Below are positions 27,726 through 34,738 of a stretch of 36,875 nt of DNA, one piece after another. Both the position numbers and the translations under genes were made by a program. This stretch comes from a virus, in IMG/VR virus record IMGVR_UViG_3300046536_000305, positions 1 to 36,875 of that record, one strand, 5' to 3'. Numbering within the stretch: position 1 is the stretch's first letter; each line of letters begins with the position of its first letter. A model generated the notes under the pieces. The model saw only the letters and a program-made list of their open reading frames with translations. It was not told where the DNA came from and made no database searches.

Positions 27726-28690
27726 CAGGAATTGAGAACGCCACCAGAAGTATCCGCGTTCGGCGGAATCGTGATCGTGTTGATGCCGGTCAGTTGCGGA
27801 TCACCGCCAAGTTGCGGATTAGCCTTGGCAATGCCAGTCCAGGACCGGAAATCTCCGTATTCCTTCGCCGCGATCTGCATCAGGTTGCCGCCCGCTATCG
27901 TGGTCTGTTTCGCGCTCGAATAAAGCGAGCCAACATTGGCGCCAATCCGGCCCGTTACCCGGTCAAGATTGATCAGCAACGGAATCTGCTGCGTGGCGGT
28001 CAGACTGTTCGTCAGGTTCGACACGTTCTGCGACAACGTATTGTTCGGCAGCACCCCTCCGAGCGTCGTCACGTTGATCAGAACGTTGTTCGTCTGTGCG
28101 ATTGCCGTCTGAACCTGCAATCTGAACTGCTGGATCGGCTGCAAAACGCTGTTCAACTGGCTTTGCGCTGCCGTAGCGAAGCTTGAGACCGCCGAAACTG
28201 CGCTTTTCACCGACTCAAAAGCTGCTGTAAGCGTCGAACTGCCGATCTTGTCGAGCAGGCTACTGGCGAATGACACATCGCCGTTGATCAGGTCGTCCGG
28301 CCCCTGCGTCGACAGCGAAGTGACTGCCTGCGTGAGGTCGGCGATGACCTCGCATTCGATCCGATACGGAATCTCATAGAACCGCTCATAGACCGGCAGA
28401 AATCGCCGGACGATGACCAGATACGAGAATTCAGACCAGGTGACGTTGGTTGCTTGGCCGGAGATCCGCAGGCCGTCCACATATCGCGCACGATCAAGAG
28501 CGGTCTGCCCGCGGAACCGGCCCGACCACGCCAGGGGCTCGGAGAACGCGCCCATTGCGTCCACCACTTTCTGGCCGCCAATGAGTTCATGAACCGAAAG
28601 GCGCTGCTCGCCGCCGAATCCGATCGACTCCGGAACCTCAAACTGGTAAAAGCTGATGCCGCCGAGGGTCAGGAGAGTGTCTGGAGTCAT
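27725..28690 (-). CDS. Baseplate/tail protein with C-terminal LysM-like domain (Mu gp43 position)
   Basis: A 321-residue protein. The N-terminal ~120 residues (GGISFYQFEVPESIGFGGEQ, AFSEPLAWSGRFRGQTALDR, SYLVIVRRFLPVYERFYEIP) resemble the N-terminal domain of Mu gp43/DNA-circularisation-type tail proteins. The C-terminal ~50 residues (GGNLMQIAAKEYGDFRSWTG, then IAKANPQLGGDPQLTGINTI) are a LysM-like fold ending in IPP. The middle is Gln/Ser/Thr-rich and helical. It links tail tube and hub and lies directly between tape measure and gp44-like genes. Confidence 0.8.
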   Translation of the reverse strand: MTPDTLLTLGGISFYQFEVPESIGFGGEQRLSVHELIGGQKVVDAMGAFSEPLAWSGRFRGQTALDRARYVDGLRISGQATNVTWSEFSYLVIVRRFLPVYERFYEIPYRIECEVIADLTQAVTSLSTQGPDDLINGDVSFASSLLDKIGSSTLTAAFESVKSAVSAVSSFATAAQSQLNSVLQPIQQFRLQVQTAIAQTNNVLINVTTLGGVLPNNTLSQNVSNLTNSLTATQQIPLLINLDRVTGRIGANVGSLYSSAKQTTIAGGNLMQIAAKEYGDFRSWTGIAKANPQLGGDPQLTGINTITIPPNADTSGGVLNS

Positions 28691-30639
28691 CGTTGGTAGC
28701 TCAGGCCGGGTGTCGGAAGGCCCATGGACATGTCAAAACTGGTCGTGCCGGTCAGCGGGCTGCTTGCCTGCCGGCCCATGTGGTCGGCCATGAAGTTGCC
28801 AACGAGTCGCCCGTCGAGATGGACGGTACCCTTCATAGCGTTGCTCATGGTGCCGCGCGAGGCCACCGGATTTATCGGTGCCGCTCCTGAGCCGGGCTCT
28901 GCCGCATTAGCATTGCCGAACATGAGCCGGTACGGCCACGCGAACGCGTGTACGGCGCCATTGGTGAATCCTTGGATCGCCTTGAATGCCGGACTATCTG
29001 CTACCGTCGCGAGAGAACGCAGCATCTCCGAGCCGACTTTAAGCATGTTCGTGACCTGGGGAAGCATGCTTGTCCCGAATACCGTCTTAAAGTCCGTCCA
29101 CGCAGCGCGAAACTCGTCTTCAGCGCCTTGGGGCGATTTCTGGTACTGCTTCTCAAGTTCCGTAATGCCCATCGCGCCGGTGGTCACGGCAATGTTCTTG
29201 TCGATCTTATGGCGCTGCAGATACATCTGCGCAAACGCATTGCTGGCCGTGCGCTGACTGAACAGGGTATTCAGTTCATTGACGATCTGGTCATCGGTGA
29301 TCTTGTCGCCCTTGACGAGTCCGTCATGACCGCGCACCCCACCGGAACGGATTGCGGGGATCAGCACGTTCAGCAACCACTCATACTTCGACTGGTTGTA
29401 GAGGCCTTCATCCTTCAGCGCACCGGGAAGAACCTGCTTGATCGTGCCGATTTTGGTGTACTCGATCATGCTCGGGTCGATCAGGCCGATCCGGGCCGCC
29501 TCCTTCATGGACTTTAGCGAACCGCGACCCATGGCCAGATTTTGGTGCGCACTCATGAGAGCAGTACCGAACCGACTGCCGCCCATTTCCTGAATCATCG
29601 GTGCGGACTGCGCATAGAACGCCTGGTTTGACAGGAGGCGCGTTGCAACGCCACCGGTCTTCATGAACGCGAGCAGATCCGTCGGCGTCACGAGGCCGGC
29701 AGAACCGGTCAGAACCTTCTGCGCAAAATCGGCCTGCTTGAACATCTCATCGGGAGACGATGTGCCGCCGCGCATCTCGATGACCTTGCCGAGAGCTTGG
29801 AAAGTCTTCGTATCAAACTTGTTGCCTTCCTCACCGAATACGCCGCGGTTCGCAGCAAGCATGCGAGTAAAGAGTGGGGTAACGGCCTTGGCTTCTTCAT
29901 AGCTGCCCATGACTTCGTGCATGTCGCGCAGCACAGTCATGCGCTCCGTCATCGATACGCCGAATTGCTTCGTGCCGCGCGCGAAAGCGTTGGCGTCCTG
30001 GTTGACCTTGTCGCCCAGATTCAGCGTACGGAACCGCGTAAAAGCCATGTCATAGTCTTTCGCGGCCTCGTAGAACTTGTGCCCTACGTAGATCGACGCG
30101 CCGGCCGCTGCCAGCGGCACGAGCATGTCCGTTGCGAGGCCCATGCCGACGCCGCCAATCCCGAACCCGCCGGGGCCGACGTGCATGTTGCCGCCGTGGA
30201 TGTGGCCGCCTCGACGACCGCCGCCACCAGCGCCACCTCCGCCCGGGCCCGGCAGAATCGGCGGAACACCGCCGCCACCGCGCCCCATCCCACGCATACC
30301 AAGCAAGCGTCGCTCGAGCGTTGCGGCCTCAACGTTAGCCGCTGCCAGTTCTCGCTCAATGCCGATGCTGCCTGTCGGCAGGGCGCCCTTGATACCTCGC
30401 AGATTGCGTTCCGCCAACAAGGCTTCCGTATTGACGCCCTTCAATCCTGCGTCAAGTGTCTTTGAAGCGGCTGCCAGATTGCGCACGCCAACAACCTCGG
30501 CGCCCATCTTCTGCAGGCGCTTGTTGACCTGCAATGCCAATGCATCAACCTTGGCGAACTGCTCCGACAACTTCAGCAGTTGCGGCGTGACAAAGTCGTG
30601 CAGCTTGAGCGTTGTGCCAATCGCGTAGGCGTCGATCAT
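28687..30639 (-). CDS. Tape measure protein
   Basis: A 650-residue protein, the longest in the tail region. It has an N-terminal coiled-coil part (LSEQFAKVDALALQVNKRLQ), a Gly/His-rich hinge at about 116-170 (RGGHIHGGNMHVGPGGFG), a hydrophobic stretch just after it (LATDMLVPLAAAGASIYVGH), and a long helical C-terminal part. It is placed after tube and chaperone genes and before the baseplate set. It determines tail length and probably reaches into the host membrane. The size predicts a fairly short tail. The ATG at 30639 lacks a strong ribosome-binding site. Confidence 0.85.
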   Translation of the reverse strand: MIDAYAIGTTLKLHDFVTPQLLKLSEQFAKVDALALQVNKRLQKMGAEVVGVRNLAAASKTLDAGLKGVNTEALLAERNLRGIKGALPTGSIGIERELAAANVEAATLERRLLGMRGMGRGGGGVPPILPGPGGGGAGGGGRRGGHIHGGNMHVGPGGFGIGGVGMGLATDMLVPLAAAGASIYVGHKFYEAAKDYDMAFTRFRTLNLGDKVNQDANAFARGTKQFGVSMTERMTVLRDMHEVMGSYEEAKAVTPLFTRMLAANRGVFGEEGNKFDTKTFQALGKVIEMRGGTSSPDEMFKQADFAQKVLTGSAGLVTPTDLLAFMKTGGVATRLLSNQAFYAQSAPMIQEMGGSRFGTALMSAHQNLAMGRGSLKSMKEAARIGLIDPSMIEYTKIGTIKQVLPGALKDEGLYNQSKYEWLLNVLIPAIRSGGVRGHDGLVKGDKITDDQIVNELNTLFSQRTASNAFAQMYLQRHKIDKNIAVTTGAMGITELEKQYQKSPQGAEDEFRAAWTDFKTVFGTSMLPQVTNMLKVGSEMLRSLATVADSPAFKAIQGFTNGAVHAFAWPYRLMFGNANAAEPGSGAAPINPVASRGTMSNAMKGTVHLDGRLVGNFMADHMGRQASSPLTGTTSFDMSMGLPTPGLSYQR

Positions 30640-30677: not shown

Positions 30678-30926
30678 ATGAAGTTCGTTTATCGCACGCA
30701 CGAATGGCTGGCGGATCATGTTTCATGGGTGCAGTACCCGAAACCGACGATACGCAGCGTGAGCGGTCACGCGGTTGGCTGGCGAGCTCGTTGGGCGCAC
30801 CGGCCGCCGATGAACCGATGGCTTGCGGTCATTGCGCCAATGGGGATCATGCTGCTCCCATATATCGGCGTGTATCTGGCGATCGCCTGGATACTGTTCC
30901 TGTTCGCCTACTTCAAAAGGACGTGA
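30678..30926 (+). CDS. Small plus-strand membrane protein (moron) inside the late region
   Basis: The start is ATG at 30678 (MKFVYRTHEWLADHVSWVQY), with GGAGG upstream; the longer in-frame start at 30612 lies in the tape-measure code. The 82 residues are basic and Trp/Tyr-rich at the N-terminus, then carry one or two membrane segments (WLAVIAPMGIMLLPYIGVYL and AIAWILFLFAYF) with a KRT end. It is the only plus-strand gene in the tail module, lying between tape measure and the gp10-like gene, whose end it overlaps convergently by 14 bases. Such opposite-strand inserts are often lysogenically expressed and may block superinfecting phage DNA entry (compare the membrane exclusion protein HK97 gp15); this is inference. 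Confidence 0.7.
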   Translation: MKFVYRTHEWLADHVSWVQYPKPTIRSVSGHAVGWRARWAHRPPMNRWLAVIAPMGIMLLPYIGVYLAIAWILFLFAYFKRT

Positions 30927-31392
30927 GTCGCGGCTTGCGCCAGCCAGCGCCAGCTACCCATGCGAACGCTGTCGCGCCGATGATCGTTTTCACGCGGTCC
31001 ATGCTGTGCAATGCAGCGGGGCCGAAGACGGGCCGCGGCGGCTGCTTCGGCGTGCCTTGATCGAACCAGACAATGTGTGGATCGTTTGAGCCAACGGCCA
31101 TTTCTTCACTGGAAACGGTACGTTGAACCGATCTTTGCATCTCGCCGGTACGGAAACCAGGATCATTCTCCGAGTAGCCAAGCCGCGAGCGTTCAGCCTT
31201 AGTCGAGTCGGCCAGTTCTTCCCACGTGGGGTAGGGGCCGACAGCCTGCTGATAGTCGCCAATCATTCCTTGCGCGGTTTTCTGCACTTCCTCGCCGGCC
31301 TTGTCCAGAATATGGTGCTTGACCTCTCCAGAGGTCGCCGCCAGCCGCTCGAGATGCAGGGCGAAGGCGCCAAAACTCTTGAACTCCCTCAT
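30913..31392 (-). CDS. HK97 gp10-like minor tail / tail-completion protein
   Basis: A 159-residue protein: SFGAFALHLERLAATSGEVK, then AGEEVQKTAQGMIGDYQQAV, WEELADSTKAERSRLGYSEN, GFRTGEMQRSVQRTVSSEE, then FDQGTPKQPPRPVFGPA. The L-x-x-S-T-x-x-x-R/K and F-x-x-G-T-x-x-x-P-x-R-P-x segments are the signature of gp10-like tail terminator and virion morphogenesis proteins. Its ATG overlaps the stop of the frameshift extension (ATGA). Confidence 0.78.
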   Translation of the reverse strand: MREFKSFGAFALHLERLAATSGEVKHHILDKAGEEVQKTAQGMIGDYQQAVGPYPTWEELADSTKAERSRLGYSENDPGFRTGEMQRSVQRTVSSEEMAVGSNDPHIVWFDQGTPKQPPRPVFGPAALHSMDRVKTIIGATAFAWVAGAGWRKPRLTSF

Positions 31393-31939
31393 TCCTTCCT
31401 CGCGAACTCTTTGGTATGCCAGTTGAAAGTCACGCCCCCTTGCTGCTCAGAAATGATGATCGCGAACGCATTGAGCGTCGTGTCATCCATCGAGAAGGCG
31501 AGATCAAATGGCACGCCATGGCTCACCAGCCACAGGGCATTGCGGACGGCGACGTTACCGACTATTTTTTTGCGGCTTCCTCGTCGACCTCCGCATTAGC
31601 AAGACCGAAATTGCCGGGCAGAGCTGCGGCGATTGCCTCCATGCCCTCCTCATCGAGGCGCTGATACAAAGCCTCAATCTCGCGCTTCGTCGAAGGCATC
31701 AGAATCACGTCTCCATCAATCGAATGCACGTACATGAGGGGCGCCACCATGCCGCGCCACATCGGATTGCCCGACGATTCGTCCATCGCGTCCACGAAGC
31801 GCAATTTGCTGAGGGCGGCCGGCTTGCGCAGCCTGATCTCGCGCCCTTTAGCGTCAGTCGTGACGACTTCCGCCTTAGCCTGAGCGACGATCTGTTGCGA
31901 CGGCGTCTGTTCCGTCTGATTCACTGTGACTTTCGTCAT
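31389..31939 (-). CDS. Tail assembly chaperone GT-like fusion made by -1 ribosomal frameshift
   Basis: The upstream frame ends ...GCC GCA AAA AAA TAG. The seven-A run at 31571-31565 on the minus strand is an A-AAA-AAA slippery heptamer. Slipping back one base continues as ATA GTC GGT..., an open frame of 58 further codons (IVGNVAVRNALWLVSHGVPF, then DLAFSMDDTTLNAFAIIISE and a C-terminal end KEFARKE) to TGA at 31391-31389. That extension has coding character, no start codon of its own near its beginning, and abuts the next gene start. This is the G/GT (P2 E/E') arrangement conserved upstream of tape-measure genes. The fusion would be 183 residues. Frameshift efficiency is unknown. Confidence 0.85.
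31562..31939 (-). CDS. Tail assembly chaperone G-like (non-shifted product)
   Basis: The 125-residue product of normal termination: MTKVTVNQTEQTPSQQIVAQ, then EIRLRKPAALSKLRFVDAMD, YVHSIDGDVILMPSTKREIE, and ALYQRLDEEGMEAIAAALPG, ending EEAAKK at the slippery run. It lies directly downstream of the tail tube gene. In the G/GT system this major form coats the tape measure while the frameshifted minor form recruits tube protein. That role is taken from lambda and related phages. Confidence 0.86.
   Translation of the reverse strand: MTKVTVNQTEQTPSQQIVAQAKAEVVTTDAKGREIRLRKPAALSKLRFVDAMDESSGNPMWRGMVAPLMYVHSIDGDVILMPSTKREIEALYQRLDEEGMEAIAAALPGNFGLANAEVDEEAAKK
31565..31571 (-). promoter_or_regulatory. 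-1 ribosomal frameshift slippery site
   Basis: Seven A residues on the minus strand (AAAAAAA, then TAG), positioned in the X-XXY-YYZ phase A-AAA-AAA and immediately followed by the zero-frame stop codon, which favours slippage. A downstream stem or pseudoknot was not resolved by eye. Confidence 0.82.
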
Positions 31940-31947
31940 GTTTTGCC

Positions 31948-32379
31948 TTATGCAGTCTTGGTGCGGCGCGAGCCGGTCCAGTTCAGCGAGATTTTCACCG
32001 TCGCATCACCCATCCACTCGCCAGCGTCAGCCAGCGACAACAGCACTCCATCGTGGCGGAACTGGGTCGTGGTGCCATTCGGCTCCGTCAGCGTCTCATA
32101 AATCTGGCACGGCTGCTCGTTGATGCCGGCGTAGTAGTTCGCCTCAAGCTGAGAAAAGTAGTCGTCGACTACGCTGTCCTGACGCTCCACGTCGAACGAA
32201 CCGGACCAGCCATCGAAGAAACGCAATCGATCCGTGATGCCGTCGAGGCGCTTCACGCGAACCTCGGTGGATTCCTGCTTGGAACTGAACTTCGTGATCT
32301 TGTTGAGCGTCAGTGCGCCGTTCGGCGTCTGGATCACAAGCGTGATGTCGCGCCCAACGGAATAACCGTTCATCGGCAT
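31948..32379 (-). CDS. Tail tube protein
   Basis: A 143-residue protein with a strong ribosome-binding site (AAGGAGG). MNGYSVGRDITLVIQTPNGA, then LNKITKFSSKQESTEVRVKR, then FFDGWSGSFDVERQDSVVDD and a final beta strand (DATVKISLNWTGSRR) fit the two-sheet tail-tube fold of contractile phages, and the size matches. It lies directly after the sheath gene, as is usual, separated from it by a terminator-like hairpin. Confidence 0.82.
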   Translation of the reverse strand: MPMNGYSVGRDITLVIQTPNGALTLNKITKFSSKQESTEVRVKRLDGITDRLRFFDGWSGSFDVERQDSVVDDYFSQLEANYYAGINEQPCQIYETLTEPNGTTTQFRHDGVLLSLADAGEWMGDATVKISLNWTGSRRTKTA

Positions 32380-32440: not shown

Positions 32441-33964
32441 TTAGGTGCCAGCGGGCTTGACGATGACGGTCGTCTGACCGCCCTGCAAATTCACCAGGAA
32501 GTTGCGGACAACCGCCTTGTAGCGGGCCTGAACATCGGCCTGCATCCAACCCTGCATGATTCGGGCGTCGGTGTTGTTAGACTTGTCGAGCGTCACCTTG
32601 TACGAGTCGATCATTCCGGTGTCGACCATGTTCTGCATGAACTGGGCGAGGCCGGCATATGCATTGGCGCGCGTCTGATCGTAAGTCTGGAAGCCCTGCA
32701 ACTGGCCGATGAATTTACCGCCCCACGCGTTGATGCTGTAGGCGATGTAATTCGTCAGGCGCGTGTACGAGTCTTCGTGCAACGCCTGATCGGAACTCGT
32801 ATTGAGTCCGATCGGCGAGCCATACTGGTTGCCAGCCGGAATCGGGTTCGTGATCAGGTCAATGCCAGCCTGCACGAGCTGCAGCAGTTCGGCTTGCGAG
32901 TACGGCTGACCGGTGTAGGTGCGCTGTGTGCCGACGATGCCCTGCATCTGCTTGTTCAGCGACGAGTTCTGCGGCGAAGCGTTCGCGAAGTAGCCGGCGA
33001 AGAAGCCTTGCGGCGACGTCAGGCGGACCTGGTTGTTGACCGTGTCGTTGATGTAGACCCAGTCGCCGAAAATCAGCTTGCCAGCGTACGAATCTATGCC
33101 GGCCGTCGCCTTGGTCGTGACAGCGTTGCTGATCGTATCGCCTGCGGGGCCCACCATCAGCATGTAGACGCCTTCGGACAGACCGAAAGCGACCTGATTG
33201 GCGTACGACGTGGTGTCGTCGCAGTCGACAAGCGCCGCAACCGAGGCGCCGGTCATGCGAAGGGCGTACATGCCTTTTCGCGGCGCTGTATCGGTGCCAA
33301 GCAGTACCGAACTGGTGATCGTCGTGGCGCCGTCAGTGCCAGATGCGAAGGCAACGGTCGTCGGTAGCGTGGGCGCGGTCGATGCTGCACCCGCAGAGGC
33401 AGTGACCAGCGCAGATGGGCCGCGGAACTGGCTATTGCCGCTGTTCACCGCAGAAACGATGGCGTCACGAAGCGTTGCGGCCGTGCCGGGAATATTGTCG
33501 AATACTTCCGACGTGAATCCAGGCGCCGACAGCGTCAGCTTGGTCGTGCTCGCCTTGGTGCCGACCGAAAGCGTCGCCGAAAGGGTGTTGCCGAGCGTGC
33601 CGGTGTACTTTGCCGTCAGCGTAACGAACGTGGTGCCGAGCGCAGCGGTAGCGGCGACGTCCGTGCCGTCCGTGACGCGAACGAGAGCGTATGCGCCAAC
33701 ATTACCCTGCTGGCTGGCATTCCACAGCGCAGTCGAAAGATCGTACTTGCGCGCCTGCATCTGGCCGAACTTGGCCGAGCCATCGTTGTAGGCGCTCGCG
33801 AAGACCGGGACACCGACCGGTCCCCAGGATGCGATGCCGACGAGGCCGGCGATGTTGCTCGGAACACCGTTGATCGGTGCCGGACCCGGCGGGATCAGTT
33901 GTACTACTATGCCTGGAACCTGCTGCGCTGTAAGGTTCACAGAACCATTCTGGACGACACTCAT
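32441..33964 (-). CDS. Contractile tail sheath protein
   Basis: A 507-residue protein. The N-terminal part (NIAGLVGIASWGPVGVPVFA, YALVRVTDGTDVAATAA) and the C-terminal part (MIDSYKVTLDKSNNTDARIM, ARYKAVVRNFLVNLQGGQTT) match phage tail sheath proteins; the LTAKYTGTLGNTLSATL segment is the common sheath sub-domain. The central region carries FGDWVYINDTVNNQVRLTSP, then QGFFAGYFA. Its presence shows the phage has a contractile tail. The ATG has GGAG upstream, just after a strong terminator hairpin. Confidence 0.92.
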   Translation of the reverse strand: MSVVQNGSVNLTAQQVPGIVVQLIPPGPAPINGVPSNIAGLVGIASWGPVGVPVFASAYNDGSAKFGQMQARKYDLSTALWNASQQGNVGAYALVRVTDGTDVAATAALGTTFVTLTAKYTGTLGNTLSATLSVGTKASTTKLTLSAPGFTSEVFDNIPGTAATLRDAIVSAVNSGNSQFRGPSALVTASAGAASTAPTLPTTVAFASGTDGATTITSSVLLGTDTAPRKGMYALRMTGASVAALVDCDDTTSYANQVAFGLSEGVYMLMVGPAGDTISNAVTTKATAGIDSYAGKLIFGDWVYINDTVNNQVRLTSPQGFFAGYFANASPQNSSLNKQMQGIVGTQRTYTGQPYSQAELLQLVQAGIDLITNPIPAGNQYGSPIGLNTSSDQALHEDSYTRLTNYIAYSINAWGGKFIGQLQGFQTYDQTRANAYAGLAQFMQNMVDTGMIDSYKVTLDKSNNTDARIMQGWMQADVQARYKAVVRNFLVNLQGGQTTVIVKPAGT

Positions 33965-34021: not shown

Positions 34022-34738
34022 CTACAGCAGGAATCCCAGAGATTGCATGTAATCAATAGGGTCTTTCGCGTGCTTCTTGAGATTGCACGGCGGGCACAGC
34101 AACTGCAAATTCGATGGGTCGTTGCTGCCGCCCAAGGAAAGAGGCGTTCGATGATCAATGTGAAAATCGCGCAACTTGTCTCGGCAGCATGCGCAGCGAT
34201 CCCGCTGCAGCGACCTCAGGCGGTCGATATCTTGCGGAGTGAATTTGCCTTCCGCTGAGCGCTTTCTCGCCTTGTAAGCACGCTTGAGTATTGCAAGACG
34301 ACCTTTGTTCGCTGCGCGCCACTTCATGCTTATATCGCGCACCCTCTCTTTGTTGGCCTCGCGATAGGCTTTCATTGAAGCTAGGCGGGCAGGTCGGTGT
34401 CTCTCGTAGTTGGCCAGCGACCAGGCGCGCGCCTTATCCTTGTTTTTCGCTCGGTACTTGTCGAATGCTGCCTTCGCGGCTTCAGGATGCCTTTCGGCGT
34501 ATCGATCCTTTATTGCCTTAACCTTGTCCGGGTTGTTGGCTCGCCAGATTTTCTTCTGTTCGGCTACGCGGTCTGTGTTCTTGGCGTGCCACGCAGCAGA
34601 GTCAATGCTCTTGCAGGCTCGACACCACGGATTGCGACCGTCCTTCCTGCGCTTTTGGAAGCCGAAGTTATCGGTCGTCTTCGTCTCGCGACACTTCGAG
34701 CAGCGTTTATGCGTGGTGCTAGAATGGGCGTCAGCCAT
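34022..34738 (-). CDS. HNH homing endonuclease
   Basis: A 238-residue protein. At the N-terminus, CSKCRETKTTDNFGFQKRRK and WCRACK form a zinc ribbon. The middle is a long basic helical region of repeated K-A/R-x-x-x-A-x-N-x-x segments (WRANNPDKVKAIKDRYAERH, FDKYRAKNKDKARAWSLAN, MKAYREANKERVRDISMKWR). The C-terminal nuclease is CACCRDKL, then FHIDHRTPLSLGGSNDPSNL, then QLLCPPCNLKK: a Cys-bounded HNH with H-I-D-H as first His motif and N at the central position. It is free-standing between the small tail gene and the sheath gene, a typical niche for selfish endonucleases. The start has AGGAG eight bases upstream. Confidence 0.93.
   Translation of the reverse strand: MADAHSSTTHKRCSKCRETKTTDNFGFQKRRKDGRNPWCRACKSIDSAAWHAKNTDRVAEQKKIWRANNPDKVKAIKDRYAERHPEAAKAAFDKYRAKNKDKARAWSLANYERHRPARLASMKAYREANKERVRDISMKWRAANKGRLAILKRAYKARKRSAEGKFTPQDIDRLRSLQRDRCACCRDKLRDFHIDHRTPLSLGGSNDPSNLQLLCPPCNLKKHAKDPIDYMQSLGFLL

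What the first reader, a model, noticed from the sequence alone, without database searches (positions are those of the whole stretch)
31389..31942. Probable -1 programmed ribosomal frameshift in the tail-assembly chaperone gene (A AAA AAA TAG)
The G-like frame ends on a seven-A slippery run followed at once by TAG, and the -1 frame continues 58 codons with coding character and no start of its own. Gene order (tube, chaperone, tape measure region) matches the lambda G/GT and P2 E/E' decoding system. Unusually, a gp10-like gene and a plus-strand membrane gene lie between the GT stop and the tape measure.
Basis: partly seen in the sequence, partly recalled or inferred. Interest (0 to 1): 0.65.

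Follow-up and report, generated by a model that had tools for sequence, protein, structure and literature searches.

The report
Phage tail chaperone ribosomal frameshift site
A bacterial virus carries a "slippery" stretch at the end of its tail-assembly chaperone gene that should make some ribosomes slip back one base and build a longer chaperone; this is a well-known trick of tailed phages, found here across a largely undescribed phage group with very strong evolutionary support.

Summary
Confirmed; ordinary in kind but unusually well supported. On the minus strand, ORF 31939..31562 (125 codons) ends GCA AAA AAA TAG. A -1 slip on A_AAA_AAA (31571..31565) adds 58 codons, ending at TGA 31391..31389. 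I collected 63 loci by the neighbouring tail-tube gene, not by this site. In 56 of 57 scorable loci (phiKX1 included), an in-phase A_AAA_AAN or G_GGA_AAC heptamer precedes a 54-68-codon -1 extension; in prophages of sequenced bacteria it is 25 of 26. Chance predicts about 0.06 of 35 non-redundant loci. The extension evolves as protein only in the -1 frame, and codon choice at the slip site is fixed even where the amino acid changes. The G-like model's best solved-structure match is HK97 tail assembly chaperone, though weakly. The gp10-like gene after GT is a lineage trait. Selected 3' RNA structure exists across the lineage but not detectably in the window. The opposite-strand membrane gene belongs to a conserved unnamed family, always antisense, beside the tape measure gene. 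Frameshifting itself is inferred; no product was measured.

The parts
31562..31939 (-). 0-frame tail assembly chaperone (G-like), 125 aa, TAG stop
   Evidence: (phrog_20383, E 8.9e-34, function unknown); AF2 model pLDDT 80.5 whose top PDB match is HK97 tail assembly chaperone 2ob9 (E 0.026, prob 0.94; VIA Z 4.4, rmsd 6.0, 99 aligned)
31565..31571 (-). slippery heptamer A_AAA_AAA, directly before TAG
   Evidence: conserved as A_AAA_AAN or G_GGA_AAC in 56/57 scorable loci and 25/26 prophage loci
31389..31565 (-). -1 frame extension (T-like domain), 58 aa plus TGA
   Evidence: pS 0.46, pN 0.12 in close pairs; AF2 pLDDT 91.2, three helices and two strands
31572..31593 (-). candidate upstream Shine-Dalgarno-like stimulator (GGAGG..GAGGA)
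   Evidence: anti-SD pairing -10.2 kcal/mol, best 2% of local positions; not significant against synonymous recoding (p 0.43)
31948..32379 (-). tail tube protein, 143 aa
   Evidence: (phrog_12993; weak phrog_1407 major tail protein)
32441..33964 (-). tail sheath, 507 aa
   Evidence: (phrog_23 tail sheath, E 3.7e-38)
30913..31392 (-). gp10-like tail completion/Neck1 protein, 159 aa; its ATG overlaps the GT stop
   Evidence: phrog_26, E 1.9e-8; found downstream of GT in most loci
28687..30639 (-). tape measure protein, 650 aa
   Evidence: (phrog_28, E 8.9e-7)
30678..30926 (+). antisense small membrane protein, 82 aa, with RxHEWLADxxSWVQYP motif; neighbour, not part of the frameshift

Best explanation
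This is a lambda G/GT-type (P2 E/E'-type) tail assembly chaperone gene with -1 programmed ribosomal frameshifting, in a contractile-tailed phage. Most ribosomes stop at TAG and make the 125-aa G-like protein. A minority, with Lys-tRNAs on AAA AAA, slip back one base on A_AAA_AAA, miss the TAG and add 58 residues, making a 183-aa GT-like fusion. By analogy with lambda, G coats the tape measure protein and the T domain recruits tube subunits; the G:GT ratio is set by the slip. Shown here: the sequence elements, their conservation, selection on the -1 frame, gene order, and compatible folds. Inferred: that slippage occurs, its efficiency, and the protein interactions.
For: Loci chosen by the tube gene, not by the slip site, carry an in-phase heptamer plus a 54-68-codon -1 extension in 56/57 cases, although the 0-frame stop varies (TAG, TGA, TAA) and lies 0-39 nt downstream. 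Prophages in Ralstonia, Cupriavidus, Pantoea, Paludibacterium and others show it in 25/26. Chance expectation is 0.06 of 35. At the slip, the XXY codon is AAA in 32/32 A-type sites, though AAG makes up 75% of Lys codons elsewhere; the preceding codon encodes Leu, Ala, Val or Ile but always ends in A, and CTA, GTA, ATA and TTA are rare there. The extension shows pS 0.46 / pN 0.12 in close pairs, while the other two frames give pN/pS 1.1 and 1.5. The extension alone folds with pLDDT 91. The G model's top PDB match is HK97 tail assembly chaperone. 3' RNA structure exceeds synonymous recoding across the lineage (mean z -1.96, 23/35 with p<0.05). Order sheath-tube-G/T-tail completion-tape measure also holds in phage phiKX1.
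Against: No product has been measured. The window itself has no significant 3' stimulatory structure (z +0.48), and its upstream SD-like element is only suggestive. Neither G nor T matches a Pfam family; the fold match to 2ob9 is weak (E 0.026, Z 4.4). One distant locus (L060) has no canonical heptamer and one prophage (L080) has A_AAG_AAG.
Confidence: 0.95

Rival explanations
1. RNA polymerase slippage on the A run makes mRNAs with an altered A count, giving the same fusion.
For: Seven A's could slip a little; one prophage (L079) has nine A's.
Against: Most members have only six A's, three non-redundant viral members use GGGAAAC with no long run, and the run sits in the X_XXY_YYZ phase in nearly every locus, which transcriptional slippage does not need.
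Confidence: 0.03
2. The -1 frame is a separate gene started internally or by re-initiation at the stop, as in the deposited annotation of phiKX1.
For: phiKX1 annotates the extension as its own ORF.
Against: The first start codon varies from codon 6 to beyond codon 40 and is absent in L027; much of the conserved WLVxNGVPFD segment lies before it in many members, so a separate gene would lose conserved residues.
Confidence: 0.01
3. The extension is a degenerate frame-shifted tail of the gene, or an assembly error.
For: None beyond a single contig considered alone.
Against: The same arrangement occurs in dozens of separate contigs and isolate genomes under purifying selection.
Confidence: 0.005

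Closest known systems
Phage lambda G/GT (reviewed in PMC5009743)
   Same: -1 slip near the end of the chaperone gene, which lies between major tail protein and tape measure; short G product and longer GT fusion
   Different: Lambda is non-contractile; here the heptamer is A_AAA_AAN abutting or close to the stop, and a tail-completion gene lies before the tape measure gene
Phage P2 E/E' (general knowledge; PMC5009743 mentions its higher frameshift efficiency)
   Same: Contractile-tailed phage with -1 frameshift after sheath and tube genes
   Different: In P2 the tape measure gene T follows E/E' directly (from memory); no family match shared here
HK97 tail assembly chaperone (PDB 2ob9)
   Same: Top solved-structure match of the G-like model
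   Different: Weak match (E 0.026, Z 4.4, 13-16% identity)
Komagataeibacter phages phiKX1/phiKX2 (LC644975, LC644976; PMC8566455)
   Same: Same gene order; phiKX1 has an A_AAA_AAC TGA slip site and homologous extension
   Different: About 29-30% identity; annotated as separate hypothetical proteins, frameshift not noted; no antisense membrane gene found

Membership tests
[quoted passage not shown]
   a tail-completion gene intervenes before the tape measure
Lambda G/GT-type tail assembly chaperone | In-phase slippery heptamer near the end of the 0-frame | tested here: met
Lambda G/GT-type tail assembly chaperone | Conserved -1 frame extension under protein-level selection | tested here: met
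Lambda G/GT-type tail assembly chaperone | Chaperone fold of the 0-frame product | tested here: inconclusive
   HK97 chaperone 2ob9 is the top match but weak
Lambda G/GT-type tail assembly chaperone | Sequence match to a named chaperone family | tested here: inconclusive
   no Pfam match; phrog_20383 of unknown function
Lambda G/GT-type tail assembly chaperone | G and GT both made in a fixed ratio, absent from mature virions | not testable with these tools
   needs expression data
Lambda G/GT-type tail assembly chaperone | G binds tape measure, T binds tube protein | not testable with these tools
   needs binding assays
-1 programmed frameshift with stimulatory elements | 3' RNA structure beyond what the protein sequence requires | tested here: inconclusive
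   present across the lineage (mean z -1.96, 23/35), not detected in the window (z +0.48); RNAalifold found no single consensus structure

The most novel reading that the evidence does not exclude
Within one lineage the stimulator of the same frameshift may have turned over: most members use a downstream stem-loop or pseudoknot, while the window's clade lacks it and relies on an upstream Shine-Dalgarno-like element. One search supports the structure part; the trade-off correlation is not significant (Spearman -0.31, p 0.07).
Probability: 0.25. Interest if true: 0.45.

Novelty: new member of a known kind. Interest (0 to 1): 0.3.

Why it matters
It lets two 'hypothetical' ORFs in a largely unannotated group of contractile-tailed phages and prophages (Ralstonia, Cupriavidus, Pantoea, acetic acid bacteria and others) be annotated as one frameshifted tail assembly chaperone. 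It also gives a deep natural data set of slip sites (A_AAA_AAC, A_AAA_AAA, A_AAA_AAG, G_GGA_AAC) and possible stimulators around one conserved protein, useful for studying how a frameshift is kept while its signals change.

Tried and rejected
tblastn of the fusion against INPHARED at E 1e-5 found nothing, and only phiKX1/2 at relaxed E; a plasmid search found nothing. The single-sequence scan of genome contigs found nothing; the tube alignment then gave 29 loci. RNAalifold gave no consensus structure. A fixed 9-bp stem (columns 14-22/54-62) pairs better than slid versions (61.8% of cells against 39-46%) and shows some covariation, but is complete in only a few members. Upstream SD enrichment is weak after controlling for synonymous codons (mean z -0.44, 1/35 with p<0.05). 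Profile searches of PDB sequences with G and T gave only chance-level matches. Fold search with the T model gave no solved-structure match worth naming and one uncharacterised phage protein (A0A6J5SEC2, E 0.007). A +1 or -2 shift was rejected: +1 frame lengths vary without conservation.

Full report
Observation. On the minus strand the window holds an ORF from ATG 31939 to TAG 31564..31562 (125 aa) ending GAG GAA GCC GCA AAA AAA TAG. The seven A's form A_AAA_AAA in the X_XXY_YYZ phase at 31571..31565. A -1 slip reads ATA GTC GGT AAC ... for 58 codons to TGA 31391..31389. The TGA overlaps the ATG (31392..31390) of the next gene. The window is a 36,875-base virus record.

Conservation test free of the site itself. 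The fusion protein finds only close relatives, so I collected loci with the neighbouring tail-tube protein, which says nothing about the slip site: 63 loci at 48-100% identity. Leaving out seven truncated ones and adding phiKX1, 57 can be scored. 56 have an ORF after the tube whose last codons hold an in-phase A_AAA_AAC, A_AAA_AAA, A_AAA_AAG or G_GGA_AAC, and a -1 extension of 54-68 codons (L026 corrected). The exception is L060. At 90% redundancy this is 35 loci: 21 AAAAAAC, 9 AAAAAAA, 3 GGGAAAC, 2 AAAAAAG; the 0-frame stop lies 0 nt (20), 3 nt (11) or 6-39 nt (4) downstream and may be TAG, TGA or TAA. In other ORFs of the same loci such in-phase heptamers occur 11 times in 89,243 codons, so 0.06 of 35 would be expected. 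A second set from bacterial genomes gives 25 of 26 scorable loci (L092 read by hand); L080 has A_AAG_AAG. This set overlaps in lineage with the first (for example Ralstonia prophages), so it is a replicate rather than fully independent.

Selection. In the -1 frame, close pairs of extensions differ at 46% of synonymous and 12% of non-synonymous sites; the same DNA read in the other two frames gives pN/pS of 1.1 and 1.5. Window-type sequence against L010 alone: pS 0.67, pN 0.21 over 58 codons. At the slip site the XXY codon is AAA in 32/32 A-type loci, although AAG is three times commoner elsewhere; the codon before it encodes four different amino acids but in A-type sites always ends in A, and CTA, GTA, ATA and TTA are rare codons there. 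Start codons in the extension fall anywhere from codon 6 to beyond codon 40, or are absent, which speaks against a conserved separate gene.

Protein. The extension consensus is LxxxxxxREALWLVxNGVPFDVAFSLDDxxRxAxAIxxSExEGxxFDxxTMxFKE. AlphaFold2 gives the G-like part pLDDT 80.5; its best PDB match is the HK97 tail assembly chaperone 2ob9 (Foldseek E 0.026, probability 0.94; VIA Z 4.4, rmsd 6.0, 99 aligned). This is suggestive, not proof. The extension alone gives pLDDT 91.2, three helices and two strands, with no solved relative found. No Pfam family matches either part. PHROGs has the 0-frame part as phrog_20383, function unknown.

RNA signals. Against synonymous recoding of the extension, the 70 nt downstream fold more strongly than expected across the lineage (mean z -1.96; 23/35 with p<0.05), often as a stem starting 6 nt after the heptamer. 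There is no single consensus structure. The window shows no such signal (z +0.48), nor do L010 and L030. These share GGAGG-type sequence upstream of the slip, but after synonymous recoding this is not significant for the window (p 0.43), and the proposed trade-off is not significant (p 0.07).

Context. Sheath, tube, G/T, tail-completion (gp10-like; phrog_26) and tape measure (phrog_28) follow in this order. phiKX1 has the same order with the slip site A_AAA_AAC TGA, its two halves annotated as separate hypothetical proteins; its paper does not contain the words frameshift or chaperone. The gp10-like gene after GT is found in most loci, so it is a lineage trait. The opposite-strand membrane gene is conserved as well: a profile finds it in 47 loci other than the window (44 distinct contigs), always antisense to the tail operon, with invariant R, W, A, S, Q, Y, P positions in RxHEWLADxxSWVQYP and mainly third-position substitutions between the window type and L010 (10, 4, 34 at positions 1, 2, 3). 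Pfam and PHROGs have no family for it.

Mechanism and known systems. In lambda, gpG coats the tape measure and the T part of gpGT, made by low-level -1 frameshifting, recruits the tube protein; the system is widely conserved in long-tailed phages (PMC5009743). Measured efficiencies for two chaperone genes of another cluster were 6% and 7% (PMC3711429). The present case fits this in position, slip site, extension and plausible fold. What is shown: sequence elements, conservation, selection, gene order. What is inferred: slippage, its rate, and the interactions.

Verdict. A very well supported new member of a known kind; low-to-moderate interest.

Noticed in passing
window 30678-30926 (+); 44 related contigs, e.g. 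L010:4500-4745 (-): Small membrane protein encoded antisense between the tail-completion and tape measure genes; N-terminal RxHEWLADxxSWVQYP motif conserved, C-terminal hydrophobic part variable; no Pfam or PHROG family. By position and type it could be a tape-measure-directed superinfection exclusion protein like HK97 gp15 (predicted inner membrane protein, exclusion escaped by tube/tape measure swaps; PMC10883804); this is inference only.
   Followed up: partly
L060:5438-6051: Distant relative with a -1 extension (66 codons) but no canonical heptamer in the overlap (0-frame ends ACG GGG GAG CGC TAG); may use another slip site.
   Followed up: partly
L080, end of the chaperone ORF: Prophage of Candidatus Glomeribacter gigasporarum BEG34 has A_AAG_AAG where its relative L082 has A_AAA_AAG; possibly a decaying prophage.
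   Followed up: no
L031, L033-L036, L066, between tube and chaperone: An extra ORF of about 131 aa sits between tube and chaperone genes in this branch.
   Followed up: no
window 34022-34738 (-): ORF of 238 aa with an HNH-endonuclease-like C-terminus (CxxC ... HIDHRTPLSLGGSNDPSNLQLLCPPCN) just upstream of the tail sheath gene; possibly a homing endonuclease (read by eye).
   Followed up: no
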